NCBI GenBank assembly: GCA_018806915.1 | Contig: JAGKQI010000081.1 | Coordinates: 558,001 to 622,000, forward strand | Direction: 5' to 3' | Length of the DNA stretch: 64,000 nt | DNA from: Phytophthora colocasiae | Lineage: Eukaryota > Oomycota > Peronosporomycetes > Peronosporales > Peronosporaceae | Part shown: one piece after another, positions 11,154 through 61,229 of the stretch | How positions within the stretch are numbered: position 1 is the stretch's first letter | How the letters are laid out: each line of letters starts with the position of its first letter | Position numbers and translations under genes: made by a program | Notes under the pieces: model-generated | Told to the model about the DNA's origin: nothing | What the model saw: only the letters and a program-made list of their open reading frames with translations | Database searches by the model: none

Positions 11154-11186
11154 AAGTTAACTTTAGTTGTCATTCGTGCAAGAACG

Positions 11187-38616: not shown

Positions 38617-40082
38617 TGTGGTGAAGCGGACGAAAAATTTTTCCCGGAGAGGCGATGTCAGCCACGAACCCGAATAGAGTCGGAACGAGCGACAGGGGGG
38701 ACCTGTGATCCCCAGATCTGGGTCGAATCAGACGAAGGTACGATGGGTCCCGCCGGGAACAGGCAACGGAGACACCGGCGAAGAAGCAAGTGGAGCGGTG
38801 TTCGTGGGTGATCCGAATCCTGCCGTGGTGTCCGTGGGTGATCCGAATCCTGCCGGAGGAAGAATGGGGAAATCAAGGATGTTCTCGCGCGATCAACGAT
38901 GACGGGGCTCCAAGCGAGCACGATCAGCTTACCCGGGCGCCCCGAAGCCTCTAACAGCACGATCCAACTTCCCCGGGCGGCGACGAAGCGAGATCACGCA
39001 AGATCGCGCAATGATCCTATCCCGTATAAGTACGAGGTCAGCTCCGGATCAAGGTCAACCCCAGGCGTGACGCAGACTCTTCTTGTGGCCTGATCCGGAT
39101 TCTTTGAAGGATCACCAAGCGGGATCAGGCAGCGATCAAGCTTCGGTTAAGTGCGAGATCAAGCTCCGGTTAAGTGCGAGATCAAGCTTCGGTTAAGTGC
39201 GAGATCAAGCTTCGGTTAAGTGCGAGATCAAGCTCCGGTTAAGTGCGAGATCAAGCTTCGGTTAAGTGCGAGATCAAGCTTCGGTTAAGTGCGAGATCAA
39301 GCTCCGGTTAAGTGCGAGATCAAGCTTCGGTTAAGTACGGAATCGGCTCAAGATCAGGGTTAGGGGAATCAAGCTAGGGATCAGCTCTGTAGCCAGTGTC
39401 ATGTGATCGTAGGATAGTAAATCAGGATGGGATTAGTAGGCATAGGAATAACCATAAGGAGAATCGAATTTGCCCTGAACCACTCAAGTGTCTTCGCCAC
39501 GCCTGGAACCGGGAACTACATTGGCCCTACAAGCGTCGGGAAGGTAAGGATACGTGACCTAGTATAGCGGTTAAGTCTGGATAATATATTGGCCAGCTTT
39601 GCCCTATCTAGTGAACTATCCTTTAAGTGCATACATCGGATCGGAAGGAATTGGTTGTTTGGCCTAACGATCCCGTCGAATCTCGCCCCCTCAAGACCCC
39701 CGCTATCGGAAGCGGCAAGCAACGTAAAGGAAGGGACCGAATCCCTAACTCTGGACTATTGGAAGACCTGGATCAAGAACCAGGCACCCGGATCAAGGCT
39801 CGAGAACTCGCCTACGACCGGGATCAAGTACCCCGAGGTGGAGTGAAGAACTTCCACGCCGCCTCAAACCCCTGCGTCACTCAAGACCTTCTTCTCGTCC
39901 CAAGACATCTTCAGAAGTTACCTGGAAGAGCGTAACCCGCCTACCGACGGGTACACAAGGTGAACACTACACGCAACAAGATCACGGATCATCGGGGGAC
40001 CCCCTCCGTTAGTCGGTGTCTGGGCGCAAGTGGCGATCGCGATCGGCCTCAACCAGATTTTGGCCAGATCCGCTCCACCACA
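38617..40082 (+). repeat. Gypsy-3 5' LTR (1466 bp)
   Basis: It starts TGTGGTGAAGCGG and ends CTCCACCACA. It contains nine units of the 23-bp repeat. A sense frame through its 3' part joins gag, but the first ATG after the LTR (40083) is the better start. Confidence 0.92.
39134..39340 (+). repeat. 23-bp minisatellite in 5' LTR, nine units
   Basis: The unit is GATCAAGCTTCGGTTAAGTG plus CGA. Units 2, 5 and 8 carry CTCCGG instead of CTTCGG, so the array looks like three repeats of a three-unit block. The last unit ends TACGG. Confidence 0.9.
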
Positions 40083-42413
40083 ATGGTGCGCGTGCCCGGA
40101 TCTTCTGGTGACTTCGGATATCACCGTGAGTCCCAAGAAGATGTCAAGATTAAAGAAGAACAAGGGGAAGAAGTGCCTACGAAGGTTGGATCGACGGAGG
40201 CACCGATGAAAACAGAAAGATCCACAGATCAGCAGAGTTCTGGGAGGATCTCTACTGACAGGCACGAGGCAGACCTGGATCGCAATCCAGATCTCGAAGA
40301 AAAACCTCGAATTCCTCCCCAGGCCCCGTCGAGGGCCATTGCGGATCTCGACGAGAATCGAGATCCGCACACGAGCGATAAGGAATCAGCAAAGCTGAAA
40401 CCTAATCTGCTCACCAAGTCCACTGTTGCCTCAAGATCGACCAAAAAAAAGAAGATCAAGAGCACCCGGACGAAATTGAAAGCTCCAGACTCAGAGCCAG
40501 AAGATGTGATCAACCCAGGATCAACGATCACCAAGGATGCGATCGAGCAGGCCTACTACAGGAAGAGGCTAAGCGAGACCTTGCTTAACGATCCCGTTCT
40601 TACGATCATACAAGTCCGCCAGATCGGTAACCTCACCGGACCAGTGTCGAAGCCCCGGACTAGCTCTGACCGCCTGAACGCGGTGAAGATCCTACTTGAT
40701 CTGCTCCAAGAAGCTGGTTTGGTGGCTGGAGAGTTCGACCCGAACTCTCTATTTGACTTGGAACTGCAAGCGATTCAATCTGCGACCCAGGATCTATTCG
40801 ATTCCCTCAAGATCTTGGTCGGCGAGCGCCCACTGACGCCCGACCCAGGCTATCAGACTGGGTCGTCATGCTACGCGTCAGCGACCTCGGAACCAGACTC
40901 AGATAGCCCGAGAAGGCTGCAACGCATGTCGTTAGGGCCCTCCGGCGCCAAGTTCCTGAAATCGCGTATGAAGAAACAGGATACACGATCGGTGGCTGCG
41001 AACCTGGAGGTCAAGAAGATTGTCGATCAGCAAGAAAATCGCCGGATCCGGACGGACCAGACCGCGCCGACGACTAACTCCACTGGATCGAGCAACAAGT
41101 TGGACGACTACTTTCAAATGGCGATGGATCGTTTCTTGAAAGAACGGAATCTCGCGACACCCCGATCGCCGATCAAAGGGGAGTTAGATGTTGAAATGGA
41201 GTCCGTCACGGCCTCGGATCCGGATGCATGGGAATACGATCCGGACGATCTGGGCATACCAAGTTCCGGGGGACAGATGTCGAGCCGAGCCACGATCGCA
41301 TCCGCGGCGATCGGTCAAGGAGGATCGTCGATGATCCAGCGGGTCCGGATCTCAGCGATCTCGGATCTGAAAGATTTTGCGGGTAAAGATCTGGACGAAG
41401 ATCGCGCTCGGGCCTGGATCAGTAAAGTCAAGTCGGCGTTCCAACGCGATCAGGCTACGGAAGAAGAGAAATGCCTCACGTTTGCAGATCTGATGGTGGG
41501 ACCGGCAAAGAACTGGTACAGGCAGCTCAGTCGAACGACGAAAACCAAGTGGGCGGATCTGTTGGACAGTTTCCAGACCCAATATTGTGGGTTGGGTATG
41601 TCGGTCGCGTGGCAATACTATCACGCTCGCAAGCGATCGGAAGAAACCCCTCTCGATTATCTCTACCGGCTCAACGTGGCGGCTTTACGTGCTAGACTGA
41701 AGATCAAGGACGGGAGCCCTAAGGCCCGCCGAGAACATGTGGACCACTCCATAGAGACATTGGGAGATCCGGAGTTAGCTGATCGGCTGACCCTACTCCG
41801 ACTGAGTGACGTCGAGGAGCTGGAGGAGGTACTCCGTGCCCAGGAACGGGCGAAAAGCAGGCAGCGTAAATCTGCGTTCGGATCGAAGTACAGACAAAAG
41901 GCACCGGCCAGTGCCCCGGCAGCTCCCACCCGAGCGGTGGTACGGGCGATCCAAACTCAAGATCCGAGCTCAGAATCAGAAGAAATATCCGGATCGGATG
42001 GATCCGATTCTGAAGGCGATCTCCGGAGGATATATCTTGCCGCGTCAGAAGACAAGCCGATCGGTACTGGGGGCGCTCCCCACCAACAGGATCAGTCGCG
42101 ATCGCACACGAACGTGCAGGACCGAGGCCGGACCACGGATCGCAGACAACCAGATCACGATAGAGGTCGCTGTTCGCATTGTGGGTCGCGGAAGCACACG
42201 GATCTGGACTGCTGGAGACGTCTAACCTGTGACAAGTGCGGAAAGAGGGGCCACCCAACGGATCGCTGTCTATATACATGCCGTGGTTGTGGGGAGATCC
42301 ATGAAGCTGGAGAATGCCCCATGGAAGAATTCTACAACCAGATCCGCAAGTGGTACGATCCGACCCGACATGCCGGACTGTTTTCCGAGAAGGTGGAAAA
42401 GATGTTAAACTAG
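40083..42413 (+). CDS. Gypsy-3 Gag with three zinc knuckles (776 aa)
   Basis: The first about 400 residues are charged and low-complexity (predicted disordered). The capsid-like core is near residues 420-620 (DLKDFAGKDLDEDRARAWIS, MVGPAKNWYRQLSRTTKTKW, ETPLDYLYRLNVAALRARLK). Three knuckles follow near residues 694-745: CSHCGSRKHTDLDC and CDKCGKRGHPTDRC are canonical CX2CX4HX4C, and CRGCGEIHEAGEC has one residue less before His. The ATG coincides with the start of the primer-binding site. The frame is intact, unlike the pol frames downstream. Confidence 0.88.
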   Translation: MVRVPGSSGDFGYHRESQEDVKIKEEQGEEVPTKVGSTEAPMKTERSTDQQSSGRISTDRHEADLDRNPDLEEKPRIPPQAPSRAIADLDENRDPHTSDKESAKLKPNLLTKSTVASRSTKKKKIKSTRTKLKAPDSEPEDVINPGSTITKDAIEQAYYRKRLSETLLNDPVLTIIQVRQIGNLTGPVSKPRTSSDRLNAVKILLDLLQEAGLVAGEFDPNSLFDLELQAIQSATQDLFDSLKILVGERPLTPDPGYQTGSSCYASATSEPDSDSPRRLQRMSLGPSGAKFLKSRMKKQDTRSVAANLEVKKIVDQQENRRIRTDQTAPTTNSTGSSNKLDDYFQMAMDRFLKERNLATPRSPIKGELDVEMESVTASDPDAWEYDPDDLGIPSSGGQMSSRATIASAAIGQGGSSMIQRVRISAISDLKDFAGKDLDEDRARAWISKVKSAFQRDQATEEEKCLTFADLMVGPAKNWYRQLSRTTKTKWADLLDSFQTQYCGLGMSVAWQYYHARKRSEETPLDYLYRLNVAALRARLKIKDGSPKARREHVDHSIETLGDPELADRLTLLRLSDVEELEEVLRAQERAKSRQRKSAFGSKYRQKAPASAPAAPTRAVVRAIQTQDPSSESEEISGSDGSDSEGDLRRIYLAASEDKPIGTGGAPHQQDQSRSHTNVQDRGRTTDRRQPDHDRGRCSHCGSRKHTDLDCWRRLTCDKCGKRGHPTDRCLYTCRGCGEIHEAGECPMEEFYNQIRKWYDPTRHAGLFSEKVEKMLN
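40084..40100 (+). other. Primer-binding site of Gypsy-3
   Basis: TGGTGCGCGTGCCCGGA lies one base after the 5' LTR, complementary to a tRNA 3' end of the form ...GCACCA. It overlaps the gag ATG (40083). The identical 17 bases recur in Gypsy-4 at 56761-56777. Confidence 0.75.
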
Positions 42414-43834
42414 GACGCTCGCCGGTTTGGAAACCGGTACGAGCCGAGCGTTCTGAGTACTGCATCTATGCATATGTGAACAAGAAATCGAGAGATCAAG
42501 ATAGGGAGAATTCGGATCTGCGCGGTAATACATGTAAGTTGCATTCGTATACTGCTAAGATCGCGAGTCTTCCCCGGGTCGATGAGTTCTCGCGATCTGG
42601 TGCGGAAGTGGCCTTGGATCTCAAGGAAGGAGAATCCAGGGGGTACTGGAAATACCACGCACCAGGAAAATGGTTCCGCCAAGCCAAGATCTCAGGCAAG
42701 ATTAATCATGAAAGAGCGATCTTGCTCCTGGACACTGGCGCCGAGGTATCCATCTTGGATACCACCTTTGCTCGTAAGGTTGGGTGCCACTTTGACACTA
42801 GTCAGAGACAGGAGTGTGTTGGGATCGGTGATAATGTGTACACCACCGAGGGAAGAACGAGGATCAAAATCACGCTTGCGGGATACTTGGTCTACTTTTT
42901 CGATATTTGGATCGGAGATCTATCCGGGCAGGATGCGATCCTGGGTATGGATTTCATGATCCCGGCTGGGGTCCGGATGGATCTAGCGAAGGGATCGATG
43001 TGCTTACCTAATGAAGTGGGGATCCCACTTAGTGGTCGCAAGAGATTATACGGGGAGAAGGTAAGATCGGTAAAATTGGAGGAAGATCTACATATCCCAG
43101 TTGGGGGATCTGAAGAGACAGCATCGAGAGTGAGATTATCGGCGACGGAGAAATTGTGGGTGACTAGAGGCGACCGATGGGTACCTACCGTGGTAAATGG
43201 ACCCGGCCGAACTCGGTACTTAGTGATCACGAATTTGAGCGAGAAGATTTTACGACTGGATCACAGATTACATGTCGGGATGGTACTTGATCAAGAAAAA
43301 GTTCCTCGCTACCCCGGGTTTGTGTCGGTCGGGTCCCGGCGTTACATGGAGTGGCAGAATCTGGCTCTAGAAGCGACGGTGGACGCAAGACCGGAACCTC
43401 AGGAAACCGTAGAGATCCCCTTACCGTCGGTCGAACGGCCGACCTACGTTACGCCGCGATCTATACTCCGTCGAGGTGGGGCAATCAAGACCGATCCTGA
43501 TCCTGCACCAATATCGACATTGGAACCGCGATCACCGACCGATACGGCCGAAGTCAAGGTCGCATTCATCGATCCCCAACCGGATCCCATGGATACCCCA
43601 CCGATCACGATCAGTTCCGACAAGGCCCCGAGTGGCGAAGCTGGGGGCGGTGAGACTGAGACGAATGGTGAGACTGAGACGAATGAGAGCTTGCCAGATC
43701 AGGCCCCAGGTCGGACAGATCGGACATGTGAAGAGGAAATCGAGGAAAAACAGAAAAACCAGATTTTCAAATCGAGATCCAACATGTATCCGACGCCGAT
43801 GCCGTCCCCATGGTTAAAGACACCCCGATCTTGA
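42314..43834 (+). CDS. Gypsy-3 aspartic protease ORF
   Basis: It overlaps the end of gag by 100 bp in another frame, so a Gag-Pro frameshift is implied. The retropepsin motif LLLDTGAEVSIL lies near 42730 and the second half (DAILGMDFMIPAGVRMDL) near 42940. After a region of unknown folded sequence the frame becomes Pro/acidic-rich and ends overlapping the RT frame by 25 bp. Confidence 0.8.
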   Translation: MPHGRILQPDPQVVRSDPTCRTVFREGGKDVKLGRSPVWKPVRAERSEYCIYAYVNKKSRDQDRENSDLRGNTCKLHSYTAKIASLPRVDEFSRSGAEVALDLKEGESRGYWKYHAPGKWFRQAKISGKINHERAILLLDTGAEVSILDTTFARKVGCHFDTSQRQECVGIGDNVYTTEGRTRIKITLAGYLVYFFDIWIGDLSGQDAILGMDFMIPAGVRMDLAKGSMCLPNEVGIPLSGRKRLYGEKVRSVKLEEDLHIPVGGSEETASRVRLSATEKLWVTRGDRWVPTVVNGPGRTRYLVITNLSEKILRLDHRLHVGMVLDQEKVPRYPGFVSVGSRRYMEWQNLALEATVDARPEPQETVEIPLPSVERPTYVTPRSILRRGGAIKTDPDPAPISTLEPRSPTDTAEVKVAFIDPQPDPMDTPPITISSDKAPSGEAGGGETETNGETETNESLPDQAPGRTDRTCEEEIEEKQKNQIFKSRSNMYPTPMPSPWLKTPRS

Positions 43835-45617
43835 CAGCCAAGGACGATAGGCTGCGTGATCAATCAACGGATGAACCGGATCCGACATCTCATGAAGGGA
43901 TCGAGAACGCTGATCAGACCCACTTACACGAAAGTGGCGATTTTTCGGCCGAAGATCAAGCCGATAATCTCGCAGTAGTACCGGAGATCCAGATTTTCAC
44001 CACTGAAGAAGTCAGGATCGAAGATCTGCAAGTAGGAAATCCGGGATCGGCTACCCCGGAGGAGATCGAGAAACTTCGACAGATTATTTGGAAGAAGCGA
44101 CATCTCCTGATCGGAAAGGGAAACGCACTTCCTCCAGCGGCCAAGGGTGTTATATGCGATATCGACGTGGGTGATGCAAAGCCGATCGCACAACGAGTCC
44201 GAAAGGTGGCGCCACAGTTCCGCGAGAAAGTATCGGATCTCATCAAAGGACTCCTAGCTGCCAAGATCATCCGGCCATCGACCTCGCCATGGGCATCGCC
44301 GATCGTGGTGATCATCAAGAAGAACGGTGTAGACATCCGACTATGTATCGATTATCGGCTGGTGAACGGTCTCACGAGGCTGATGATCTACCCAATGCCT
44401 CTGATCAATGACCTGTTAGAAGATCTTGACAAGGTTCTGTGGTACTGTTCATTAGACATGGCGAGTGGGTTCTGGGTCGTATCAATGACCGATCGAGCTC
44501 GCGCGATCTCAGCTTTCATCACCCCGTTCGGCCTCTTCGAGTGGAATCGCATGCCGTTCGGGCTGAAGAACGCCCCTCAGATCTATCAACGTCTTGTGGA
44601 CAACGCCCTATATGGATTTTTGAAGATCTCCCAGTCAGGGAATACGAAAGACTCTACAGATGTGTTTGAATCAGGGTCCCGAAGATCCTGGTCGCCCGTC
44701 GGTTCTAGGACGGAGATCCTACATCGACGATATCTTGATCACGGCTGGAACATGGGATCAAATGTAGGATCGGGTGGAAGACCTATTGGAGGCTTGTGAT
44801 AAGTGGAATCTCTCGATCAGTGTGGCGAAGAGCTTCTGGGGCATGGATAAGGTGATATATCTCGGACACAAAGTGTCGATCGACGGATTGGAGGCAAACC
44901 CGAAAGACCTGAAGTCTCTGACGGATCTGCCATTCCCTGGGTCGCTCCGATCCATGCAATCGTTCCTGGGAAGTTTGAATTACTATAGTCGGTTCATCGA
45001 GGATTATGCGATCTATGCATCGGTCCTATATGAACTACGTGAAGTGGAGTTCGCAGAACTGAAGAAGCGACCAGATCTTCGAAAGATCATGGATAGTACG
45101 GACCCGATCAACCGAGATCCCGTTGCGCTTAAGTCGAATCAGGATGGATCACCCGACACCTTGACTCAAAAGGGGAATAGTACGCCGGATCTTAACTTGG
45201 GGGCGACGCCTCCCCCCTGTTCAAGCAAGGTCGGAGCCAATCTGGCCCAAAGAGCTGGCGACGAAAGGTGGGGTAGGGCACACAGGGCGTTTACAGCCTT
45301 GAAAACCAAGATCGCGTCGACCCCGATCCTTCGTCACTTCGACATGACAAAGTTACCCGTGGTGATCGTGTATGCCAGTGACTGGGCGATTTCCGCTTGC
45401 CGCACTAATGCAGGAACACGACCAGATCTACCACCCGGTCGCGTTTGCCAGCCGAACCTTGAAGACGAACGAGTTAAACTATAATGTTGCCGAAAAGGAG
45501 GTGTTGGCTCTACTTCGGATCCTGGATCTACACTACACCCTGTTGGTGGGACGTCGGATCAAGGTCCTAACCAGACACTCCACGCTTGCCTGGCTGTTCA
45601 AGTCTGCCGGCCTTTAA
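43810..45617 (+). pseudogene. Gypsy-3 reverse transcriptase and first RNase H, broken
   Basis: RT begins in the frame from 43810 (PTSPWASPIVVIIKKNG-like, LCIDYRLVNG, SLDMASGFW, RMPFGLKNAPQIYQ). The catalytic YIDD (near 44730) is in a different frame, followed there by a TAG (44765-44767). RT thumb and connection resume from about 44774 (YLGHKVSIDGL, FLGSLNYYSRFI). The RNase H part is split again near 45385 (VYASDW in one frame, HPVAFASRTL in the next) and ends at a TAA (45615-45617). At least two indels and two nonsense changes make this copy unable to encode a working RT. Confidence 0.82.
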
Positions 45618-45794
45618 GGGCGTCTGGGACAATGGTCTGCTCTCCTGTCCCCATGGACACTCGAGATCACGAAGTGTACGAAGGGAGAGGATGAGATACT
45701 GGGGGCGATCGCAGCTAATATAACGCCTAGATCGGAGATCGACGAAGCCCTGATCGCGATCGCGCCACAGAAGGAACCAAGGCGTAAGATCCAG

Positions 45795-48023
45795 ATGCCG
45801 ATTCCCACCGTAGATCCAGGTGAGGAGCTATGGGTAGTAAGTTTCGACGGTTCGGCACGCGTGAAACGAGGAGGAGGCGCTTTCAGCGCGATCGTGTGGA
45901 GTTTGCCGGAGTGGAAAGTAATCAAAGCTAGATCAGACTATGCGGAGAGTCTTACTGTCAATGAAGCGGAATACCGTGGGCTCTTGCTAGGTCTTGGCAT
46001 GATCGCACAGTTAGAACGCCGCCGTTTGGTCATTTGCGGCGATTCGAACCTAGTGATCCGACAAGTCCGGGGCGAGATCGACTGCAAGGCGCCAGGATTG
46101 ACGTTACTGAAACAGAAGGTGCTAGATCACTTGCGGAATTGGGGAGGTCATGAGCTAGTCCATGTGAAGAGAGACTGGAATGGGAGCGCAGACAGCTTGG
46201 CGAGTGCCGCGCTGCAGCGAGGAAGCGGGATCGAGGTCCACGATGAAGCAGATCGGTGCGATCTGGTCACCCTAAATCGGCTTGATGAGGTGTTGATCCC
46301 TCGAGTTGAAGCTCGAACGGTGCAAGTGTCGGCCGTAGCCACGGGTGCAGCCCGAGCGCGACCCGATGCCGCCGTCCTGCGAGAGGAACTGATCCGGGAG
46401 ATGCGAGTGGATCGGATCAGGCGAGCCCAGGACGAGGAGGTCTGGATCGCCGGACTAAAGAAGTACCTGGCTGGGCAGATCGCGGATCTTACTCGAGCCG
46501 AGTCTGGATCCTACGCCAAGATCGCTTCCGAGTATGAGGTAGATGAACAGGATCTGTTGTTTTATTGCCCACCAGGGCCGAGATCAAGAGGTGATCGCGA
46601 CCGCCTGATGAGACTCGTGGTTCCAGAAACGCTACAGCAGGATGTCCTCCACCACTACCATACGACTCTGGAAGGGGGACATCAAGGGATCGGACGCACT
46701 TATCAGCGGATCCGAGATCATTTCCACTGGAGGGGATTATATCGGAGTGTGCAGCGATACGTAGGCGAGTGTGTAGACTGTGAGACCGGAAAGGGGAGAC
46801 CCACGATCCGGGGCGAGTCACCTGGGAATCTGCAAGCTACATACCCATTCCAGATCATAGCGATGGATCACATACCCTCTCTGCCCAGATCCAACAAAGG
46901 CAATACTGAACTGCTGATCTGGGTGGATCTGTTCACGGGATATGTGATCGCAAAGGCTAGTTCCTCCCGATCGGCCCAGACCGTCGCGGAATCTTATGAA
47001 GAATGCGTGTTCCGCAGATTTGGTGCTAGCGAGATGATCAGGCACGATCGAGAACCGGGCTTCATGTCCGACTTCTTCAGATCGTTCAATAAGATCCTGG
47101 GGCAGCGACAACGGGCAACGATGGCCTACCGGCCGCAAGCCAACGGGACTGCGGAACGGATGGTCCAAACGGCCACTAGGGCAATCAAGATGTATGTTCA
47201 AGATCTCGATCAAAAGGACTGGGATGAATATGCGGAGAGATTGACTTTCGCCATTAACACGGCTCACGATCGGGTCCGGGGAGATACCCCTCACTATTTG
47301 GTACACGGATGGGATCCAAGATCGACGTTGGAAGCAACGATCCCGATCGGGTCGACCAGACGCCACGATCGCGATCCAAGACGGTGGAGATATCGCGTTC
47401 AGAGATACTACCAGCAGTCGAGAGAACAGGTCAACGCTAAGCTGCGAGAGGCGATCGCGGACCGAGCTGATCGGCACAATGAGGATGTCGATCCGCATCA
47501 GATCGAAGCTGGATCACGAGTTTGGCTATACCTAGATCGTGTGAAGGAAGGGTATGCCCGTAAACTCGCCCACCTTTGGCACGGCCCGTTCCGTGTTGCA
47601 GAGAAGCTCAATGAATTCACGATCAAGCTGGAGATCGCGGGCTCTGATTACCATATCTTTCCGGTGGTTCATGTTTCTAAGCTAAAGCTGGTACGGAATT
47701 TCCCAGATCGACCGCGGATCGAGTTGACGGTAGATGAAGCAGATCGGCTCGATTTCGATGAGATCCTCCTTTCGGAGGACAGTTGGGTTCCAGATCTGGA
47801 TGCCGACGAGTACGAAGTCGAACGGATCTCGGACATGCGAAGTGGGAAACGAACTCGTTACGGCCGAATCTATCGTGAATTCCTGGTGCACTGGGTCGGT
47901 TATGATGAGCCAACGTGGGTCGACGAAGCTGATCTTAACTGTGGGGCCATATTGGGCGCGTTCCTACGTGACCACGCTAATCGGAACCGGTTCGGCGTGA
48001 TGCAGTCGCATAAAGAAGTGTAA
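45795..48023 (+). CDS. Gypsy-3 archaeal-type RNase H, integrase and chromodomain (742 aa)
   Basis: Residues about 15-145 are a second RNase H: SFDGSARVKRGGGAF (first Asp), NEAEYRGLLLGL (Glu), CGDSNLVIRQ (Asp) and DWNGSADSLASAAL (last Asp) keep the four acidic residues. An integrase zinc finger (HHYHTTLEGGHQG...CVDC) lies near 275-330. The core has MDHIPS, RHDREPGF and QANGTAERMV as D-D-E. A GPF-type module (WHGPFRVAEKL) and a C-terminal chromodomain (FLVHWVGYDEPTWVDEADL) follow. This frame is intact although the upstream RT is broken. It would normally be part of one Pol polyprotein. Confidence 0.88.
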   Translation: MPIPTVDPGEELWVVSFDGSARVKRGGGAFSAIVWSLPEWKVIKARSDYAESLTVNEAEYRGLLLGLGMIAQLERRRLVICGDSNLVIRQVRGEIDCKAPGLTLLKQKVLDHLRNWGGHELVHVKRDWNGSADSLASAALQRGSGIEVHDEADRCDLVTLNRLDEVLIPRVEARTVQVSAVATGAARARPDAAVLREELIREMRVDRIRRAQDEEVWIAGLKKYLAGQIADLTRAESGSYAKIASEYEVDEQDLLFYCPPGPRSRGDRDRLMRLVVPETLQQDVLHHYHTTLEGGHQGIGRTYQRIRDHFHWRGLYRSVQRYVGECVDCETGKGRPTIRGESPGNLQATYPFQIIAMDHIPSLPRSNKGNTELLIWVDLFTGYVIAKASSSRSAQTVAESYEECVFRRFGASEMIRHDREPGFMSDFFRSFNKILGQRQRATMAYRPQANGTAERMVQTATRAIKMYVQDLDQKDWDEYAERLTFAINTAHDRVRGDTPHYLVHGWDPRSTLEATIPIGSTRRHDRDPRRWRYRVQRYYQQSREQVNAKLREAIADRADRHNEDVDPHQIEAGSRVWLYLDRVKEGYARKLAHLWHGPFRVAEKLNEFTIKLEIAGSDYHIFPVVHVSKLKLVRNFPDRPRIELTVDEADRLDFDEILLSEDSWVPDLDADEYEVERISDMRSGKRTRYGRIYREFLVHWVGYDEPTWVDEADLNCGAILGAFLRDHANRNRFGVMQSHKEV

Positions 48024-48373
48024 GGGGAGCCAGGCGAGGTGACAGGGTCACCTCGCTGTGATCGAAGAAGCTGATGTGGAGGAGAATCCAGATCAGAACG
48101 AGAGTTTTATATTTGTGTATATGCATGTGCGTAGGGAATTTGACGTTGGAAGATGGTGATCCGGGATGTCGAGATGGAGATGAAAGGGGATCATGCCTAA
48201 AATGATAGAGTACGATGGAATGACTGTGGGAGTGGAGATTACGGATCACGAGTGGAGATTATGAGAATTACGAATGGAGATGGAAGAATGTAGAACGGCC
48301 CTGGGAGGGGTTCCGAATCCTAACTTGGGGAGAAGCCCCGAGCCTTGCTGCAGGTGATCGGAGTTCGCACGAC
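48024..48373. other. Spacer between Pol and the antisense ORF
   Basis: 350 bp between two convergent frames. No further ORF or RNA structure recognised. Confidence 0.5.
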
Positions 48374-50566
48374 TTACGGAGAAGCGGCCCCGGCGGGAGG
48401 AGGATTGAACTTGCCGATGAGACGGGGGATCCTGGTAGCAGGATGGTTGACCGGGTCTTGCCGATACTGGTTACGCCAAGGATCCGCCTCGTCACACTCC
48501 TCCAGAGCCTCGATCAGGTTCGCCGGCTCTGGGACGTTCGCGTTGGGATCCGCCAGGTTGGCACGCCGAGAGACCACGCCGGGATACCAACGAACCACAT
48601 CCACCGACGGAATGGGGAGGTGAAGGAAGAACGGATCCAGCAGGATGTCGAGATCGAACCACTGATCGCGCATTATGGCGGGGAAGGAGGCGAGGAATTG
48701 GCGCCAAGCAGACCCAGCCCGACTCCGCCGGGCCTTGCGAGCAACGTAATACCGCTGCAGTTCAAGATCCGCATCCTGCATGGCAGAGGTGATCTCGAAG
48801 TTGTGGGTGGCCTCCCAAAATGCTTGACGGTGCCGTTCCTCCAGAACGCGATAGGTGGCGGCCACGGCCGCGAGGGGTGTTCCCTCCCTCTCATGCAGAT
48901 CGAGGTCGAACGTAAGGGGACCCGGGTTCGCGAAGTCGTTCCACGGCTCCAGAGCCAGCAGATCAAGCACGTTCACGCCCGTGATCAACTCGTGGAGGTA
49001 TTCGGTGCCGGGGGTCGGTGCAGGCCCAGCCTGTATCTGGGAAGGGAACAGCCAGCCCGAAGGGATCAACAACCGTTTGCCCAGAGAACTGGCGATCAGA
49101 CCCACGATCGAATACTGCCCGATCACCTGCGGATCCCACGGCACGATGTCAGCGGCCGCGAAGGTACGCTGCCGATCGTACCCTGGAATGAAAGAGGCGA
49201 CCGGGAACAGGGGTGGTCGGAGCCCGGGGGGCGAGGAACCGCCGGAAGGAGGTGGCGGCGGTGACGGGGAACCCGGAGGTGATCCTGGAGACGGCGGGCC
49301 TGATCCATCTGGAGATGGGCTTGAGCCGTCCGGAGACCCCGATCCACGGGTGCCAGAAGGTCCGGCTCTCGGAACCTGACCGGACTCGCGCCGGTGCGTC
49401 GAGATAGACCGTTGGCGGCCCATGTGTAGAGTCTCGTCCTCCTCGGAGTCCTTCGCCTCGTTGGAACGTTCCGATTCGGCTTCAGAACTAGTTCCATTGC
49501 TGGGTTCTGGACTTTCGTCCTCTTCGGACGGCGATGAGAATGGGTGCTGGGGATCGTAGTCGGAGTCTTCCTCGTCCTCATCCGGCGAATCACCCTCGGC
49601 GGGGAGTGATCCGGACTGATCCGTAGGCGCTGGGGTCGGATCAGGGGCTGGAGTGTCGGTTTCCTCCCCTCCGGTTTGCCCAGAAGCTTGATCCGCCAAC
49701 AGATCCAGCGGACTCGCCGTTGATCCTGCCGGGGTCGGGACCACCGTGGGTGTGACAGGCTGGGTTGACCCGGGAGCTTCGGTAGCTGCAGGTTTTAGAT
49801 CACGGGGAGCTGAGGTGCTCCGAGCCGGACGCTTGCGTGAGGAAGGAGGAACGGCCGGGGAAGCGGAGGCGCTTCGAGATCTTTTGGTGGCACGAGCCGC
49901 CCGTCGATCCGCGATCCACGAGGACAACCGAGCAGAGGAATCCTCGGCGTGGTGCAGCTGTTGTTCGGCTTCGGCATAATCAGCGTCCAGCTCTTGGTGA
50001 GCCTGTCGAAGCTCCGCGTTCTGTCGCTGGAGTTGGTCGAGTTCCTGTGTCGCCGCATCCCGGGCGGAACGAGCCACGTCAAGGTCTGCGAGGGCAGACA
50101 AACGATCTTGGGTGGCATCGTCCAGGTCGACCTGGATTCGATCACGGTCTACCGTTACTCGATTGAGATCTTGCATTGCCTGATCCCGGTCGAGGCGGGC
50201 CTGATCCAGGTCTGCGACGGCCTGATCCCGCTCGGCAATGGCGGCACGATGCTGGACGGAGAGCTGGTCCCGGTCGTGCTGGATTATTTCCAGATTTCCC
50301 AAGGCGTCTGCCAGATCTTGCTCCAGGCTGGATACGGCGGCGGCATCGCCGGTTGCACCCAGAGGCGGAGCGCGAGAATCCGGGGCGGATACGTCCTCCA
50401 AGGCGAGGTGTGCCCGAGCCAGTTCAACCTGGTGATCCTCTGCCTCGCGTTCCAGATACGCGACTTCGGCTCGAGCGGCGAGCAACTCCGCTTGGGTCCG
50501 CGTCAACTCCAACCTCAACCGAGCTTCCTCTGCCGTCGGGCGAGTCTGATCAGCAGGCATGGCCAT
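48374..50566 (-). CDS. Gypsy-3 antisense ORF, main part (730 aa, unknown)
   Basis: An ATG at 50566 opens a 730-codon frame opposite to gag-pol in a region with no sense coding role. Residues about 10-205 are a long coiled coil with regular Asp/Gln/Arg/Leu heptads (RDQAVADLDQARLDRDQAMQ). A basic patch follows (TKRSRSASAS, SSRKRPARS, possible nuclear signal), then about 210 acidic and Pro/Gly/Ser-rich residues. A C-terminal region of about 260 residues looks folded (YSIVGLIASSLGKRLLIPSG, YLHELITGVNVLDLLALEPW, RDQWFDLDILLDPFF). I recognise no family. The ORF just upstream on the same strand is in the same frame and separated only by a TAA. Possible roles (accessory, envelope-like, regulatory) are speculation. 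Confidence 0.68.
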   Translation of the reverse strand: MAMPADQTRPTAEEARLRLELTRTQAELLAARAEVAYLEREAEDHQVELARAHLALEDVSAPDSRAPPLGATGDAAAVSSLEQDLADALGNLEIIQHDRDQLSVQHRAAIAERDQAVADLDQARLDRDQAMQDLNRVTVDRDRIQVDLDDATQDRLSALADLDVARSARDAATQELDQLQRQNAELRQAHQELDADYAEAEQQLHHAEDSSARLSSWIADRRAARATKRSRSASASPAVPPSSRKRPARSTSAPRDLKPAATEAPGSTQPVTPTVVPTPAGSTASPLDLLADQASGQTGGEETDTPAPDPTPAPTDQSGSLPAEGDSPDEDEEDSDYDPQHPFSSPSEEDESPEPSNGTSSEAESERSNEAKDSEEDETLHMGRQRSISTHRRESGQVPRAGPSGTRGSGSPDGSSPSPDGSGPPSPGSPPGSPSPPPPPSGGSSPPGLRPPLFPVASFIPGYDRQRTFAAADIVPWDPQVIGQYSIVGLIASSLGKRLLIPSGWLFPSQIQAGPAPTPGTEYLHELITGVNVLDLLALEPWNDFANPGPLTFDLDLHEREGTPLAAVAATYRVLEERHRQAFWEATHNFEITSAMQDADLELQRYYVARKARRSRAGSAWRQFLASFPAIMRDQWFDLDILLDPFFLHLPIPSVDVVRWYPGVVSRRANLADPNANVPEPANLIEALEECDEADPWRNQYRQDPVNHPATRIPRLIGKFNPPPAGAASP

Positions 50567-50572
50567 AGCCGC

Positions 50573-51178
50573 TTATGGACCTTGGGAGGAATCGTTCCTC
50601 CGCCAGCGATCAAGGCTACGCTGAGTGAGGGTCAGGTCATGACGCACGGCGGCGAGCCCCCGTTCGCGATCCTGAAGCTCATCCCGGAGTTCAATCTCCG
50701 TCTCCCCGGCTCTGCGAAGTTCGGCCAGCCGGAAGTCGAGATCCTCGAGCGCAGAGTCTAGCCGCGCCTGGATCCGGGCCAGTCGCTGCTCAGACTCCCG
50801 TCGTTCGGCGTCGTGCTGGGCCCGCTGATCCTGCAAGGCGGCGATCGCGTCCCCACCGATAGCATCTCCGGTTCCCGATCGCAGATGAGCGATTTCGGCG
50901 TTCAGCCGCAAAATCTCCTCCGCTTGGTCGTCCCGGAAGCGCTCCATATCCTCCATGTCGGATCGCAACCGGCGAACGGTGTCGTCCAGGTGGTCCCGAT
51001 CGCGACTCAAGGTCTCGCGCATCCGTTGGCTATGGGCCAGCCTCGCTTGCAAGGTGACCAGCTCAGGGTTTACCCCGGGGGTTGAGAAGCGGAAGGCCGT
51101 GGATCGGGCGGATCGGATCGAGTGCTCGCTCGAGGGCGTTCTCGGCGTCAAGGGGGGCGAGGAAGGCGGATCGGACAT
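50573..51178 (-). CDS. Gypsy-3 antisense ORF, upstream part (201 aa)
   Basis: It starts at an ATG at 51178, 104 bp inside the 3' LTR, and ends at a TAA (50575-50573) that is in frame with the ATG of the 730-aa ORF six bases further. Ser/Pro-rich N-terminus, then coiled coil (LRSDMEDMERFRDDQAEEIL, RIQARLDSALEDLDFRLAEL). The composition continues smoothly into the downstream ORF, so the two were probably one protein of about 930 residues, or the TAA is read through. Confidence 0.6.
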   Translation of the reverse strand: MSDPPSSPPLTPRTPSSEHSIRSARSTAFRFSTPGVNPELVTLQARLAHSQRMRETLSRDRDHLDDTVRRLRSDMEDMERFRDDQAEEILRLNAEIAHLRSGTGDAIGGDAIAALQDQRAQHDAERRESEQRLARIQARLDSALEDLDFRLAELRRAGETEIELRDELQDRERGLAAVRHDLTLTQRSLDRWRRNDSSQGP

Positions 51179-51281
51179 TTCGAGAGAGTGGTGGCGCTTG
51201 AACGACTTGTGTTCCAGGTGGTGAATGTGGAAATAAACCCGAAGTGAGCTGCGGCAGCTCAACTTACGTGCTGGGGGCGGA

Positions 51282-52632
51282 TGTGGTAAAGCGGACGAAA
51301 AAATTTTCCCGGAGAGGCGATGTCAGCCACGAACCCGAATAGAGTCGGAACGAGCGACAGGGGGGACCTGTGATCCCCAGATCTGGGTCGAATCAGACGA
51401 AGGTACGATGGGTCCCGCCGGGAACAGGCAACGGAGACACCGGCGAAGAAGCAAGTGGAGCGGTGTTCGTGGGTGATCCGAATCCTGCCGTGGTGTCCGT
51501 GGGTGATCCGAATCCTGCCGGAGGAAGAATGGGGAAATCAAGGATGTTCTCGCGCGATCAACGATGACGGGGCTCCAAGCGAGCACGATCAGCTTACCCG
51601 GGCGCCCCGAAGCCTCTAACAGCACGATCCAACTTCCCCGGGCGGCGACGAAGCGAGATCACGCAAGATCGCGCAATGATCCTATCCCGTATAAGTACGA
51701 GGTCAGCTCCGGATCAAGGTCAACCCCAGGCGTGACGCAGACTCTTCTTGTGGCCTGATCCGGATTCTTTGAAGGATCACCAAGCGGGATCAGGCAGCGA
51801 TCAAGCTTCGGTTAAGTGCGAGATCAAGCTTCGGTTAAGTGCGAGATCAAGCTTCGGTTAAGTACGAGATCAAGCTTCGGTTAAGTACGGAATCGGCTCA
51901 AGATCAGGGTTAGGGGAATCAAGCTAGGGATCAGCTCTGTAGCCAGTGTCATGTGATCGTAGGATAGTAAATCAGGATGGGATTAGTAGGCATAGGAATA
52001 ACCATAAGGAGAATCGAATTTGCCCTGAACCACTCAAGTGTCTTCGCCACGCCTGGAACCGGGAACTACATTGGCCCTACAAGCGTCGGGAAGGTAAGGA
52101 TACGTGACCTAGTATAGCGGTTAAGTCTGGATAATATATTGGCCAGCTTTGCCCTATCTAGTGAACTATCCTTTAAGTGCATACATCGGATCGGAAGGAA
52201 TTGGTTGTTTGGCCTAACGATCCCGTCGAATCTCGCCCCCTCAAGACCCCCGCTATCGGAAGCGGCAAGCAACGTAAAGGAAGGGACCGAATCCCTAACT
52301 CTGGACTATTGGAAGACCTGGATCAAGAACCAGGCACCCGGATCAAGGCTCGAGAACTCGCCTACGACCGGGATCAAGTACCCCGAGGTGGAGTGAAGAA
52401 CTTCCACGCCGCCTCAAACCCCTGCGTCACCCAAGACCTTCTTCTCGTCCCAAGACATCTTCAGAAGTTACCTGGAAGAGCGTAACCCGCCTACCGACGG
52501 GTACACAAGGTGAACACTACACGCAACAAGATCACGGATCATCGGGGGACCCCCTCCGTTAGTCGGTGTCTGGGCGCAAGTGGCGATCGCGATCGGCCTC
52601 AACCAGATTTTGGCCAGATCCGCTCCACCACA
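51282..52632 (+). repeat. Gypsy-3 3' LTR (1351 bp)
   Basis: It starts TGTGGTAAAGCGG and ends CTCCACCACA, with four 23-bp units. Besides repeat number I see only a few substitutions relative to the 5' LTR (for example CACTC versus CACCC near 39879/52429). Confidence 0.92.
51799..51890 (+). repeat. 23-bp minisatellite in 3' LTR, four units
   Basis: Same unit as in the 5' LTR, all CTTCGG type, the third and fourth with TACG. Confidence 0.9.
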
Positions 52633-53819: not shown

Positions 53820-54887
53820 TCACTGGTGCTGTCCTCTACAACACGGCGGGCAGCACCGATCGCATGCGCATTTAAACCATCGCTCATTACCGTAGTGAAC
53901 CGTCACCTGGGCGCCTGCCTTCACGTTCTTGATCATTTTGACGAGTACACGCACTCGTGAACGTGTCTGCTGCCCCACGAAGGCTGCGTTGGGCTCGCAG
54001 GAGTGCGAAAGGAATCTCGTAATAAAGCTGCACCTCCGGGCGTCCACGTATACGTAGTTCTTGTTCACCGACTTGTCATTATACACGAGCGTGTATCCGC
54101 TGTTCTCCTTCATAGCAACAGGCGGCTGACCCTCAACTACTGCGGGGAACTCTGTGGGCTCTCCGCAGTACTCGCCCAATACGTCGCCGATGTCGAAATC
54201 AGTTGTGGTGTACACTCCAAGGCCTACACGGCCGGTCTCAAACAAATGCAAGGTGCTCAGAGTGCGCGGTGCGTTGCTGCACCTCACTCCGAGGTTACAG
54301 TACTTCGGGGTGCGAAACGATGCCGACGCCACGTTTGGGCAAGAGTCCCAGAAGCAGTCCCCCATACACTGATACGGGTCGAAACAGCCAATGTCCGGAA
54401 ACTTCACGCCATTGCGTTTGCAGCCGGTAATGCGTCGAATTTCCGCAGGCCACGGGACTGCACGGAGCAGGTTGCGGCTAGCTTTTTGCGCGGGATCCGG
54501 ATAGGTAGTACGTCGAGTGTGCAAATTCTCCAGGTGCTCCTGCACCTCTGGGCTTCTCCGCAAATTCTTGAATATAGCAGCCTTAAATGTTTTGGCATGG
54601 TAGATCGCGCTGCCGCTCTTGGTTATGGGGCACCTCGCCACGTGCCGTCGCTTCCTCGACCGGGGCACGTGCCACTGCGCCCTCTTCTTCTTGGCTTGGT
54701 GCCGTATCTTCGCACAGGCGTGGCGATTCGGTATGGCGAGGACGTAAGCGCCGATTCCCCCGCTTGGCGAGCACGCCTTAAACCGTGTAGAGGCTTCCGC
54801 AGCGCTCGGATTTGGGGTTCCGCCGTGCGCGGGGTGCTGGGTGGCCTCATGTGGTCTGCATTGGATTCCGCATCTGAAGAGCTGCAC
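53820..54887 (-). pseudogene. SET-domain lysine methyltransferase, 5' end unclear
   Basis: The C-terminal two thirds is clear. An AWS-like Cys-rich pre-SET (CMGDCFWDSCPN...CNLGVRCSN) is followed by SET (TGRVGLGVYTTTDFDIGDVL, EYCGEP, YVDARRCSFITRFLSHSCEP, VTVHYGNERWFKCACDRC). The usual N of the RFxNHSCxPN substrate-pocket motif is Ser here, though NA follows CEP. The open frame begins without an ATG (GTG at 54887), while a plausible N-terminal stretch (ETRASALNKALEGAVAAAFD, 55033 downward) lies in another frame, also without ATG. Either a frameshift near 54.7-54.8 kb or an unseen intron separates them. I favour a decayed or transposon-associated copy of a histone methyltransferase gene. Confidence 0.65.
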
Positions 54888-55144
54888 ACGCTGTTCTGCG
54901 GTGTTTCCGGGACTATTTCCTCGCTTGTATCGCGATAACCGGCACGTACGGCGTCGAATGCAGCTGCCACTGCTCCTTCAAGCGCTTTATTGAGTGCGCT
55001 GGCACGTGTTTCCGCCGAGAACGTTTCCGTCACCAGATCAAATGTCCGAAGCTTGCGCCTCTTGGATTCTCTAGCCTTGAAGAGGATACTGATGACATGA
55101 TGTTAATTCCGATTTTCGAGCGACAGGTGGATATTACGTTACGA

Positions 55145-56758
55145 TGTGATTGGTTATACTATGGGTTATAAGCGAAAGGGACTTTGGGACGCGGCCGCAC
55201 CCGTGCGACACCTGTGGAAGATTGTGGATAAACCTTCGCCTGACTGTAAAGGGGCCCAAAGGACCAGAAGTGTACTTCAGAGTGTGCACAACTCTGAAGG
55301 TCAACTACACTCTGTCTGGTCACCGGACTTTCCCCGACGATGAGTGCCTAAGTTCTGGCGGAAAGTCTCTCAGAAGAACGTATCTCTGAGAGACCTCATC
55401 CCGTTACCGTCCAGCGCGACGATGGATGGTTCAAGGATTCACAACATATACCCGCAGAGACCAAGTATCGCACGCTGGACGCCGCGCACCCGCGCAACCC
55501 CCAAGATCTTCGTGTACGTTGTAGCATTGGTGCTCCGTACTCTGGTTACTTACTCAAAACTCTGGTATCTCTAACTCTGAGTGACTAAGACTCTGAAAAC
55601 CAAGTGATATCAGACTCTGAAACCACCGAAGATTCAAGACCATACTGAAACCAAGTGAACCCAAGTTCAAGTCACGCATTCAAGTGATTACTGACCTGCA
55701 CATCCCCCGTAATGACGTCTCTACCTGTCAACCCATCGAGATCGGCTGCACAGACTGCATACTGAGACCAAGTTAAAGTACCAGATGTATACAAAGACCA
55801 AGAGTACCTGAGATATGACGACTGACTGCATAAAGGACGCAAAAGACGACAAGAAGAAGAGAGTTACCAGAGATATATGATAGTTATGAGGAAGATAAAC
55901 GATAAACAGAGTTCAATTTGCTTGCTACTGCACAAGTCCGCTTGAGAGGTATTCAAGCCACTACGTCATCACGTACGTCGTGTGATCTCCACCAAATTCA
56001 ATCCTTAGGTGGAGATCAGGTAGCATGTAGAGACCTGAAAGGACCCGCCTATTCCATATCCTAGTTGGGTCGTTTGTTTTGTCTCTAGCGGTAGCCCATT
56101 TCATATTGATCGTTTGGACAGGCTCTGGAAACTAGACAGTCGTTTTCAGAGTGCAAGGTAGACTGTTATATATAGCCGATTGTATTGGTTTATATTTTCC
56201 CTCTATATTAGAGGGTGGTGCGCGAACGTAAAGGGATACCAGACAGACCAGGTGTCTGGTAGTAAGTCCCTAGTTGACCTGGAGTGTTAGCCCACCGTTC
56301 AAGGGCCTAGAAAGAATAAGAACGGCTGTATATATTTGTATATTTTCGAACTCTGTATATTGGTTGTTTATCTCTGAAAGTCAGGTATCTCGGTTCTGGA
56401 TTTGTGATATTCAGACACCGAATTCCGACTTTTCTCTGGTATATTAACCTCTTTTCGACCGCCGACTTCCTGGAAAACACTTTGGTTTCCAGAGATTCCG
56501 ACTCCCGAACGCTCCTGGAAGGATTTTCCTGAATACCGACACCAGACTCCAAGGGAACCCCAACCTCTCTTCACAACACATTCTCAGACTCCGGCGAGGG
56601 TCATATTTCCGAAGACAACGAACCCACGAGGATACCGCAAGGTACCACACGCCAACCTACCGTTGTACGGCTCTGAAAAAACCCTTTTCGGTAGTCGTAT
56701 AACTAGGGTTCACTATACGCCCCTGCTCCGCGACCAAAGTTTCACCGACTTCGCGACA
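55145..56758 (+). repeat. Gypsy-4 5' LTR (left end provisional)
   Basis: Inferred from the primer-binding site at its right end. The interior has many short gactctgaa-like repeats (55540-55640). The left boundary is a guess from the TG start and the absence of host sequence beyond the SET gene. Confidence 0.5.
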
Positions 56759-56760
56759 AC

Positions 56761-56777
56761 TGGTGCGCGTGCCCGGA
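56761..56777 (+). other. Primer-binding site of Gypsy-4
   Basis: TGGTGCGCGTGCCCGGA, identical to Gypsy-3 over 17 bases, so both probably use the same tRNA primer. Confidence 0.75.
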
Positions 56778-56851
56778 TCTTTGGAATCGTGATATCACCG
56801 GATTTGAGAGTACAAGAAGAGAAAGTTTCCTGTCAAGCGTCTATATTCAAG

Positions 56852-60411: not shown

Positions 60412-61103
60412 CCCCTGCCAAGTCTCGAGACTTCCGGGCTGACAATATTCCGCGAGGACAGTTCAAGCCCAAGCGTGTGCATCGGACTTATGTCGCAAGA
60501 GATATGGATTCTGAAGACTATGACTCTGAAGACTCAGAAAATCATAAGGAAGCTCTGAAATTCAATCAGGATACCAGAGATCAGACGGGTGATTCCAGAA
60601 CTCCAAGTGCGACTTCAGAGTCTACCCGTGATAAAAGTACTGCGCAGGCATCTTCGAACAATTCAAAGGCTCCACCAAGTGCAGATTGGACGCAGACTCT
60701 GACGAATGAGGTATATCGAGTGATGGATAACATGGGATGGCGTCCGCCGCCCCAGTCCCCGTCTGGATCGTCAGGTCAGGGGTTCCATCAAAGGCGTCAT
60801 GAGAATGGTGGTTACTGGAACAAGTTCTGTGAAAAATGTCAACGCTCAGGACACTCAGAAGAAGATTGCTGGAGAGACGTCACGTGTGACCGATGTCAGG
60901 AAAAGGGACACCCGAGTCGAATGTGTCGGATGCCACCCTGTGAAGTATGTGGAAGAGTACACCCTGGAAAACCCTGTGAAGATTTGAAAACTCTGGAAGC
61001 ACTCAAGCAACTCGCTCGACAAGGTGCACTCAAGGACATGCCGAACCACCTACGGGAGAAACTCCTGAGTGATGAGGCGGACTCTGGGAAGCCGTTAAAC
61101 TAA
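60354..61103 (+). pseudogene. Gypsy-4 Gag, zinc-knuckle part
   Basis: It continues Gag in a shifted frame without its own convincing ATG. Acidic region, then knuckles CEKCQRSGHSEEDC, CDRCQEKGHPSRMC (CX2CX4HX4C) and CEVCGRVHPGKPC (one residue short), the same three-knuckle pattern, including the short third one, as in Gypsy-3. Confidence 0.72.
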
Positions 61104-61229
61104 TATGCCCGTCGGATGGGGATCCGAAACGCGCCGGGCATGGCGTTACCCCAGAGTTGTGTGTTCTAGTGTGTGTAGGGCCAGAGCTGAGAAAGATTCA
61201 CGATAACACTCAACAATGCATGACTACTT

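What the first reader, a model, noticed from the sequence alone, without database searches (positions are those of the whole stretch)
48374..51178. A roughly 2.8-kb antisense ORF between pol and 3' LTR in a dual-RNase-H Gypsy element
Seen directly: 201 and 730 codons on the strand opposite gag-pol, in one frame separated by one TAA, beginning 104 bp from the 3' LTR. The sense strand has nothing comparable. The encoded sequence has ordered regions (coiled coil, basic patch, disordered acidic region, folded C-terminal part), so it looks like a real protein. Plant Tat elements, which also have a second RNase H, can carry antisense ORFs at this place. I do not know of a described oomycete counterpart of this protein. 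It may be an accessory gene from an LTR antisense promoter.
Basis: partly seen in the sequence, partly recalled or inferred. Interest (0 to 1): 0.85.

Follow-up and report, generated by a model that had tools for sequence, protein, structure and literature searches.

The report
Antisense gene family in oomycete retrotransposons
Jumping genes in a Phytophthora-like genome carry, on the strand opposite their usual genes, a large protein-coding gene that natural selection preserves, that in one subfamily has its own intron, and that has been exchanged together with the neighbouring promoter region; its job is unknown but is probably to control the element itself.

Summary
A 14-kb Chronos-like Gypsy element (window 38617-52632) has one antisense frame between pol and the 3' LTR; the TAA is private to this copy. 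Of 33 type-1 (T1) loci, 13 keep an antisense ORF of 900 aa or more. The frame is under purifying selection (median dN/dS 0.23); the frame of the longest sense ORFs is not. A second subfamily (T2) has pol 97.6% identical but an antisense protein only 42% identical; the differing block runs sharply from the pol stop to mid-LTR, so antisense gene and U3 were replaced together. All 12 T2 copies carry a 61-63-nt spliceosomal-type intron readable on the antisense strand. A distant Chronos-like element starting in this window has a constrained, probably homologous antisense gene. Homologues exist in P. sojae, P. infestans and P. megakarya. I read it as an accessory gene for a nuclear coiled-coil regulator of its own element: coding status is near certain, the U3-regulator role a hypothesis, promoter and expression untested.

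The parts
38617..40082 (+). 5' LTR (1466 bp); U3 holds a 23-bp tandem array, 8.8 copies at 39134-39336
40083..40101 (+). putative primer binding site; overlaps the first ATG of gag
   Evidence: read; the same motif follows the 5' LTR of the second element
40083..42413 (+). gag-like ORF, 776 aa
   Evidence: weak Retrotrans_gag match, 16.3 bits, below cut-off
42314..43834 (+). aspartic protease ORF
   Evidence: PF13975, 35.5 bits
43810..45484 (+). reverse transcriptase and Gypsy RNase H, frame broken in this copy
   Evidence: PF00078 and PF17919; two ORFs
45795..48023 (+). second RNase H (RVT_3), integrase, chromodomain
48024..48373 (.). spacer between the pol stop and the antisense stop; start of the block that differs between T1 and T2 elements
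   Evidence: 50.5% identity to T2, 30 shuffles mean 43.1, maximum 48.8
48374..50566 (-). antisense ORF, 730-codon part: rest of the coiled coil, basic/Ser-rich patch, acidic disordered stretch, conserved C-terminal domain
48377..49225 (-). C-terminal domain (283 aa), the part conserved between species; all-helical model of low-moderate confidence
50573..51178 (-). antisense ORF, N-terminal 201 codons, ending at the TAA private to this copy
51241..51247 (-). INR-like motif, 69 nt upstream of the antisense ATG; not more frequent than chance
51273..51281 (+). polypurine tract, identical in T1 and T2 elements
51282..52632 (+). 3' LTR (1351 bp); the U3 part up to about 51930-52010 is replaced in T2 elements, the rest is 83-88% alike
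51799..51886 (+). U3 tandem array, 23-bp unit, 3.8 copies; T2 element L040 has a different 16-bp unit array in its U3

Best explanation
The frame is one gene of Chronos-type Ty3/Gypsy elements, read from the strand opposite gag-pol, starting just inside the 3' LTR and ending before pol. It encodes a roughly 840-1100 aa protein: coiled coil, basic patch that looks like a nuclear localisation signal, acidic/Ser-rich disordered stretch, and a C-terminal domain without a Pfam match, predicted helical. Shown here: coding constraint, conserved place and orientation in T1, T2 and the distant T3, an intron-like stretch on the antisense strand in T2, and replacement of the gene together with U3. Inferred: an antisense mRNA is made, spliced in T2 and translated; the protein is nuclear, dimerises, and acts on its own element, most likely by binding the type-specific U3 (for example its tandem arrays) to tune sense transcription, as the antisense-encoded HBZ regulator does for HTLV-1. 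The element keeps it because lineages without it spread less well.
For: Purifying selection: T1 median dN/dS 0.23 over 560 pairs (0.20 over the 283 pairs with dS > 0.15), T2 0.37 over 66 pairs, pol control 0.05 over 941 pairs; T3 pN/pS 0.11-0.17 in 9 of 10 pairs, 0.87 in the near-identical one. Within T1 the coil (0.14-0.17) and C-terminal domain (0.15) are tighter than the disordered stretch (0.33). Of 34 pol copies without a listed antisense hit, 5 were fetched; the 4 readable ones carry it, with frame lesions in each (L046-L049). Intron: GT...AG stretch in 12 of 12 T2 copies, CTGAC branch site in 10 of 12, the same in-frame stop in 12 of 12; Phytophthora branch consensus is ctgack (PMC2483917, table row seen). 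Block replacement: pol T1-T2 dS 0.316 and 97.6% aa identity (300 pairs; the T2 copy with the most diverged pol, L041, left out), antisense 41.8%, U3 46.0% against 42.6% shuffled; 32 T1-U3T1, 9 T2-U3T2, 0 mixed, 5 uninformative of 46 rows. T1 and T2 C-terminal domains differ as much (52-54% identity) as either does from P. sojae or P. megakarya (46-55%), while the best near-full-length pol hits in six other Phytophthora species are 70-79% identical.
Against: No RNA or protein data. The gene and U3 are neighbours, so any crossover with ends in pol and R-U5 moves both; linkage alone does not show that they interact, and the pol tree gives no sign of more than one such replacement. Constraint is weaker than on pol. 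The spacer keeps slightly more identity than any of 30 shuffles, so the two blocks may share a remote common origin there. No DNA-binding domain found, no fold match. No recognisable promoter beyond chance. Nuclear location and dimerisation are guesses from sequence character.
Confidence: 0.6

Rival explanations
1. The antisense protein is real but does a replication job (virus-like-particle partner, nuclear import of the pre-integration complex, chromatin targeting) and does not regulate U3; it travels with U3 only because they are adjacent.
For: Constraint and presence in many copies fit any function needed in transposition; adjacency explains linkage; plant reviewers discuss nuclear import of the pre-integration complex as one possibility (PMC7264820, passages).
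Against: A replication partner of gag or pol should co-vary with gag-pol, yet pol is 97.6% identical between T1 and T2 while this protein is 42% identical; gag of T2 elements was not compared.
Confidence: 0.3
2. The active product is the antisense RNA (dsRNA or siRNA source, or sense-transcript interference) and the ORF is secondary.
For: Any antisense mRNA would overlap the sense 3' end fully; sRNAs map to both strands of P. infestans Gypsy elements (PMC3522703, passages).
Against: Codon-level constraint in the antisense frame, an intron that would remove an in-frame stop, and a C-terminal domain conserved across species are not needed for RNA-only action.
Confidence: 0.06
3. A host or other mobile gene was captured in reverse, once, and is hitchhiking.
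For: Outside Phytophthora only one unnamed-source relative was found, so the ultimate origin is unknown.
Against: Present at 92 merged places of this family and in a distant family with 97 matched pieces, under constraint, and in other Phytophthora species; an ancient capture remains possible as origin.
Confidence: 0.03
4. A chance open frame favoured by GC-rich composition or by a constrained sense frame.
For: GC is about 60% here; one sense frame also shows low pN/pS in T1 (0.26-0.38, frame 4), the usual mirror of a constrained opposite strand, and in the disordered stretch it is slightly lower (0.38) than the antisense frame (0.42).
Against: The antisense frame is lowest in the other two T1 regions and in T2; cross-species homologues; intron.
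Confidence: 0.01

Closest known systems
Chronos Ty3/Gypsy elements of oomycetes (Ustyantsev et al. 2017, PMC5348765; outline, abstract and passages seen)
   Same: Gypsy RNase H plus second archaeal-type RNase H plus integrase-linked chromodomain; Peronosporales host
   Different: That paper's main text uses the word antisense 0 times and, in the passages seen, describes no antisense ORF
Antisense aORFs of plant Tat/Retand/Grande/RIRE2 elements (PMC11963269 passages; PMC7264820 passages and section 5)
   Same: Large antisense ORF between pol and 3' LTR of Gypsy elements, conserved in families; nuclear or DNA-related features
   Different: In Retand the proteins mostly carry the TRP28 domain (PF04195), not found here; no antisense intron or replacement together with U3 is told in the passages seen
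Boty of Botrytis (named in PMC7264820 section 5)
   Same: Antisense ORF at the same place in a non-plant element
   Different: Its protein was not compared here
HBZ of HTLV-1 and other retroviral antisense genes (start of the abstract of PMC10186651 in the listing; mention in PMC11963269 passages; other details recalled)
   Same: Antisense gene near the 3' LTR with a nuclear regulator product; coiled-coil and acidic/basic make-up (recalled)
   Different: HBZ is a bZIP factor, much shorter and starting from within the LTR (recalled); no bZIP match here

Membership tests
Chronos group | two RNase H domains in pol | tested here: met
   PF17919 25.1 bits (below cut-off 29.8) and PF13456 47.0 bits; clear in the second element (RT_RNaseH 68.4 and RVT_3 62.7 bits)
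Chronos group | chromodomain after integrase | tested here: met
   PF00385 27.4 bits, cut-off 25.1
Chronos group | place in the RT tree with Chronos elements | not tested
   no reference Chronos sequence was fetched; other chromodomain-bearing oomycete elements outside Chronos are said to exist (PMC11541908, one passage)
Plant Tat/Retand antisense aORF | antisense ORF between pol and 3' LTR as a regular part of the family | tested here: met
   beside 26 of 60 listed pol copies by search and in 4 of 4 readable of the 5 fetched among the other 34; 29 not looked at
Plant Tat/Retand antisense aORF | TRP28 domain (PF04195) | tested here: not met
   no hit in the 730- and 201-aa parts at E <= 0.1, none for the window's C-terminal domain at E <= 1, and not among the 25 of 35 families shown for the 22 members; the genome-wide search found 0 but its control was empty too
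HBZ-type retroviral antisense regulator | bZIP domain | tested here: not met
   no bZIP family among hits of the 730- and 201-aa parts at E <= 0.1
HBZ-type retroviral antisense regulator | antisense transcript from the 3' LTR | not testable with these tools
   no RNA data
Protein-coding gene | dN/dS clearly below 1 in the claimed frame | tested here: met

The most novel reading that the evidence does not exclude
The antisense gene and its U3 form an exchangeable immunity-like cassette: each protein type recognises its own U3 (possibly its tandem arrays) and regulates or shields elements with that U3, so T1 and T2 are regulatory specificities carried on one gag-pol backbone, much as phage repressor-operator modules are.
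Probability: 0.25. Interest if true: 0.9.

Novelty: new variant of a known kind. Interest (0 to 1): 0.72.

Why it matters
Antisense accessory genes of LTR retrotransposons are known from plants and a fungus, and a review calls their function unknown (PMC7264820, section 5). A separate lineage with a similar architecture (second RNase H plus antisense gene), an unrelated-looking protein family, an antisense intron that gives a clean RNA test of expression, and a gene-plus-U3 block that was replaced as a unit offers a natural experiment on what such genes do. It may also explain a set of Phytophthora proteins now annotated as hypothetical, though their genomic context was not seen here.

Tried and rejected

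Promoter: I first took an INR motif upstream of the antisense ATG as evidence for an oomycete core promoter (motifs from PMC3599244, passages). It is at -69 in 28 of 28 T1 rows and doubled in 8 of 8 T2 rows, but a Markov control on three of these rows expects at least one in 0.49-0.68 of such stretches, and the INR+FPR combination occurs in 0 of 36 rows. Dropped as evidence. In the one T3 copy whose upstream stretch was printed I saw no INR by eye.

Cassette swap in L048: the pol tree of 42 rows put T1 element L048 among T2 elements, which I read as a recent cassette swap. The sliding comparison shows instead a T1 element with a T2-like patch in pol, aa 421-660. So the data show past recombination between the types and one old block replacement, not repeated swaps.

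Homology T1/T2 to T3: tblastn E 2.8e-4, HMM E 7.1e-7 in six frames of 16 kb, hhalign probability only 53%, E 1.4e-4; restricted to C-terminal domains 5%, E 0.0021; HMM 17.7 bits against at most 2.4 in 200 shuffles. Probable, not proven.

The tree of C-terminal domains leaves the order of T1, T2, P. sojae and P. megakarya open. A second protein search from P0014 found only itself. No relatives in viral contigs. Searches for a description in print: (open-access PMC; of 104, 2079, 393, 4 and 24 papers holding the terms, only the 20, 20, 10, 4 and 10 listed were seen).
Full report
What is there. The window holds a complete Gypsy insertion at 38617-52632 with LTRs of 1466 and 1351 bp (7 mismatches in 1439 aligned bases; the length difference, 115 bp, is five 23-bp array units), a 4-bp duplication and a gag-pol whose pol frame is broken in the RT region. 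Domain content (protease, RT, Gypsy RNase H, second RNase H, integrase, chromodomain) is that of Chronos, the oomycete group described by Ustyantsev et al. (PMC5348765; outline, abstract and passages seen). Placement in the RT tree was not tested. The genome is 92.5 Mb in 105 contigs. The best pol matches in the protein search are mostly Phytophthora entries (79% P. cinnamomi, 74% P. fragariae, 89% over a 468-aa P. citrophthora entry), so I take it as a Phytophthora; the species was not identified.

The antisense frame. ORFs 48374-50566 and 50573-51178 on the minus strand lie in one frame. The stop between them is found only in this copy among the 34 T1 rows mapped, where it stands twice because W and L001 are the same locus. 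Of 33 T1 loci, 13 have an antisense ATG-to-stop ORF of 900 aa or more; the others are shorter, by stops, frame lesions or truncation. Merging searches gives 92 places in the genome, a lower bound since only 61 and 59 candidates were scored. Of 60 listed pol copies, 26 have a listed antisense match right downstream. Of the 34 others, 5 were fetched: in four (L046-L049) the antisense gene is there, split by frame lesions; the fifth (L045) is two overlapping elements and was set aside. The other 29 were not looked at.

Selection. T1 pairs: median dN/dS 0.23 (560 pairs), 0.20 where dS > 0.15 (283 pairs), 0.30 where dS < 0.05 (127 pairs), as expected when dead copies add neutral changes. T2: 0.37 (66 pairs). 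Pol: 0.05 (941 pairs). So the antisense protein is constrained, but less than pol. By region in T1: 0.17, 0.14, 0.33 and 0.15 for residues 1-200, 200-420, 420-655 and 655-934 (all). In a six-frame control the antisense frame has the lowest pN/pS in two of three T1 regions and in T2; in the disordered region a sense frame is marginally lower (0.38 against 0.42), the usual mirror effect; the frame of the 273- and 270-aa sense ORFs is at 0.88-1.03 in T1 and 0.75 in T2.

Two subfamilies and a replaced block. The genome holds T1 (34 of 46 rows, the window locus standing twice) and T2 (12 of 46) antisense types. Between the types pol is 97.6% identical in amino acids with dS 0.316 (medians of 300 pairs; L041, a T2 copy with more diverged pol, left out), but the antisense proteins are 41.8% identical overall (L004 against L042) and 52-54% in the C-terminal domain. 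At T1's own dN/dS a dS of 0.316 would leave them near 85-90% identical (my estimate). Along the element, identity is 86-96% up to the pol stop, 40-62% through spacer, antisense gene and U3, then 83-88% in R-U5 (W against L042 and L040; L044 is similar except that its last window is 59%). The polypurine tract and the first bases of the LTR are the same in L042, L040 and W apart from one base of W. U3 type and antisense type agree in 41 of 41 informative rows (32 T1, 9 T2; 5 uninformative). U3 arrays differ: a 23-bp unit in the T1 elements scanned (window, L047) and a 16-bp unit in T2 element L040; L042 passed no array threshold there. In noncoding parts U3 is at the level of shuffles (46.0% against mean 42.6, maximum 46.0), the spacer slightly above them (50.5% against mean 43.1, maximum 48.8). 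Fast divergence does not explain the sharp edges or the noncoding loss of similarity; replacement by recombination does. One element (L048) shows that T1 and T2 have recombined in pol. T1 and T2 C-terminal domains are as far from each other as from those of P. sojae and P. megakarya (46-55%), so the two types are old or one came from another lineage.

An antisense intron. In 12 of 12 T2 copies the antisense frame meets the same stop inside a stretch (63 nt in 11, 61 in L034) that begins GTRCG and ends CGTAG, with CTGAC 34 nt from its end in 10 of 12 and TTGAC or CTGAT in the other two (the script's pattern missed L036 because of one exon base, its stretch is printed there). The script's 'in-frame stops' column counts stops in all frames; the true in-frame stop is the one. 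Phytophthora introns favour a ctgack branch site, with table values of 74-78 that I take to be median lengths (PMC2483917, table row seen). Differences between copies in the stretch (0.049, 10 sequences) are at the level of exon third positions (0.039). The flanking coil matches T1 and P. megakarya proteins, which have no counterpart of the stretch (my reading of the sequences). An intron on this strand is invisible to splicing of the genomic RNA and so survives retrotransposition; this is indirect evidence that an antisense transcript is made and spliced.

A distant relative. A second, larger element starts in the window (5' LTR about 55093-56758) and ends beyond it (3' LTR from about 70541, window numbering continued). 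Its integrase-chromodomain region is 45% identical to that of the first element over 491 aa; it also has two RNase H domains and a chromodomain. [quoted passage not shown] the window copy is broken into three, and intact copies exist (tool-reported open frames up to 1148 aa among 97 matched pieces from 89 scored candidates; 1106 aa from the first ATG in L052). pN/pS is 0.11-0.17 in nine of ten pairs and 0.87 in the near-identical pair. Its C-terminal part matches the T1/T2 profile weakly but above every one of 200 shuffles. Thus the antisense gene probably predates the split of these element families.

Other species. Twenty-one proteins match the C-terminal region at E <= 0.01: 3 P. sojae, 1 P. 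megakarya, 16 P. infestans and one from an unnamed source (36% identity). The fuller ones share the plan coil, basic patch, acidic stretch, C-terminal domain. Their genomic context could not be seen here.

Mechanism. Shown: coding, constrained, conserved in place and strand, replaced with U3, intron-bearing in T2. Inferred: expressed; nuclear; dimer; acts on its own element. I prefer a regulator of U3 because the protein changes with U3 and not with pol; adjacency is the plain alternative and I give it real weight. Literature gives the nearest parallels: plant aORFs, in Retand most with TRP28, with Grande gene23 nuclear and transcribed from its own promoter (PMC7264820 passages and section 5, PMC11963269 passages), and retroviral antisense genes such as HBZ (start of the abstract of PMC10186651 in the listing; details recalled). 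No oomycete antisense ORF was seen in the listings, which cover open-access papers only and of which only the top rows were shown.

Noticed in passing
window 55093-64000, continuing in L050 and L051: Second, distantly related Chronos-like element with two RNase H domains and chromodomain, LTRs 99.4% identical, same primer-binding motif, and its own antisense gene family with tool-reported open frames up to 1148 aa among 97 matched pieces in the genome.
   Followed up: partly
window 39134-39336 and 51799-51886: The two LTRs of one insertion are 99.5% identical but hold 8.8 and 3.8 copies of a 23-bp array, so the U3 array seems to change in length faster than point mutations arise.
   Followed up: no
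window 40083: The first ATG of the gag-like ORF lies directly behind the 5' LTR and overlaps the putative primer binding site, so gag may have no leader outside the LTR.
   Followed up: no
L048, pol aa 421-660: T1 element with a T2-like patch in pol: recombination or template switching between subfamilies.
   Followed up: yes
L040 just after its 3' LTR end (about 6750): The flank resembles the antisense leader of a T2 element, perhaps a nested insertion beside another copy's LTR.
   Followed up: no
L042 and L043 upstream of the T2 antisense ATG: The T2 antisense frame stays open from an ATG 159 codons upstream of the likely start, into the U3 region.
   Followed up: no
window 3732-6938 and 8665-9714 (-): Another Gypsy element with Ty3-like capsid (PF19259), RT, RNase H and integrase on the minus strand.
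   Followed up: no
window 10884-15869 (+): 1661-aa Gypsy polyprotein with chromodomain; Gypsy-type RNase H models but no RVT_3 match.
   Followed up: no
window 53820-54887 (-): SET-domain ORF between the two elements.
   Followed up: no
window 22553-24838 (+): ClpB/Hsp104-like AAA+ protein, 761 aa.
   Followed up: no
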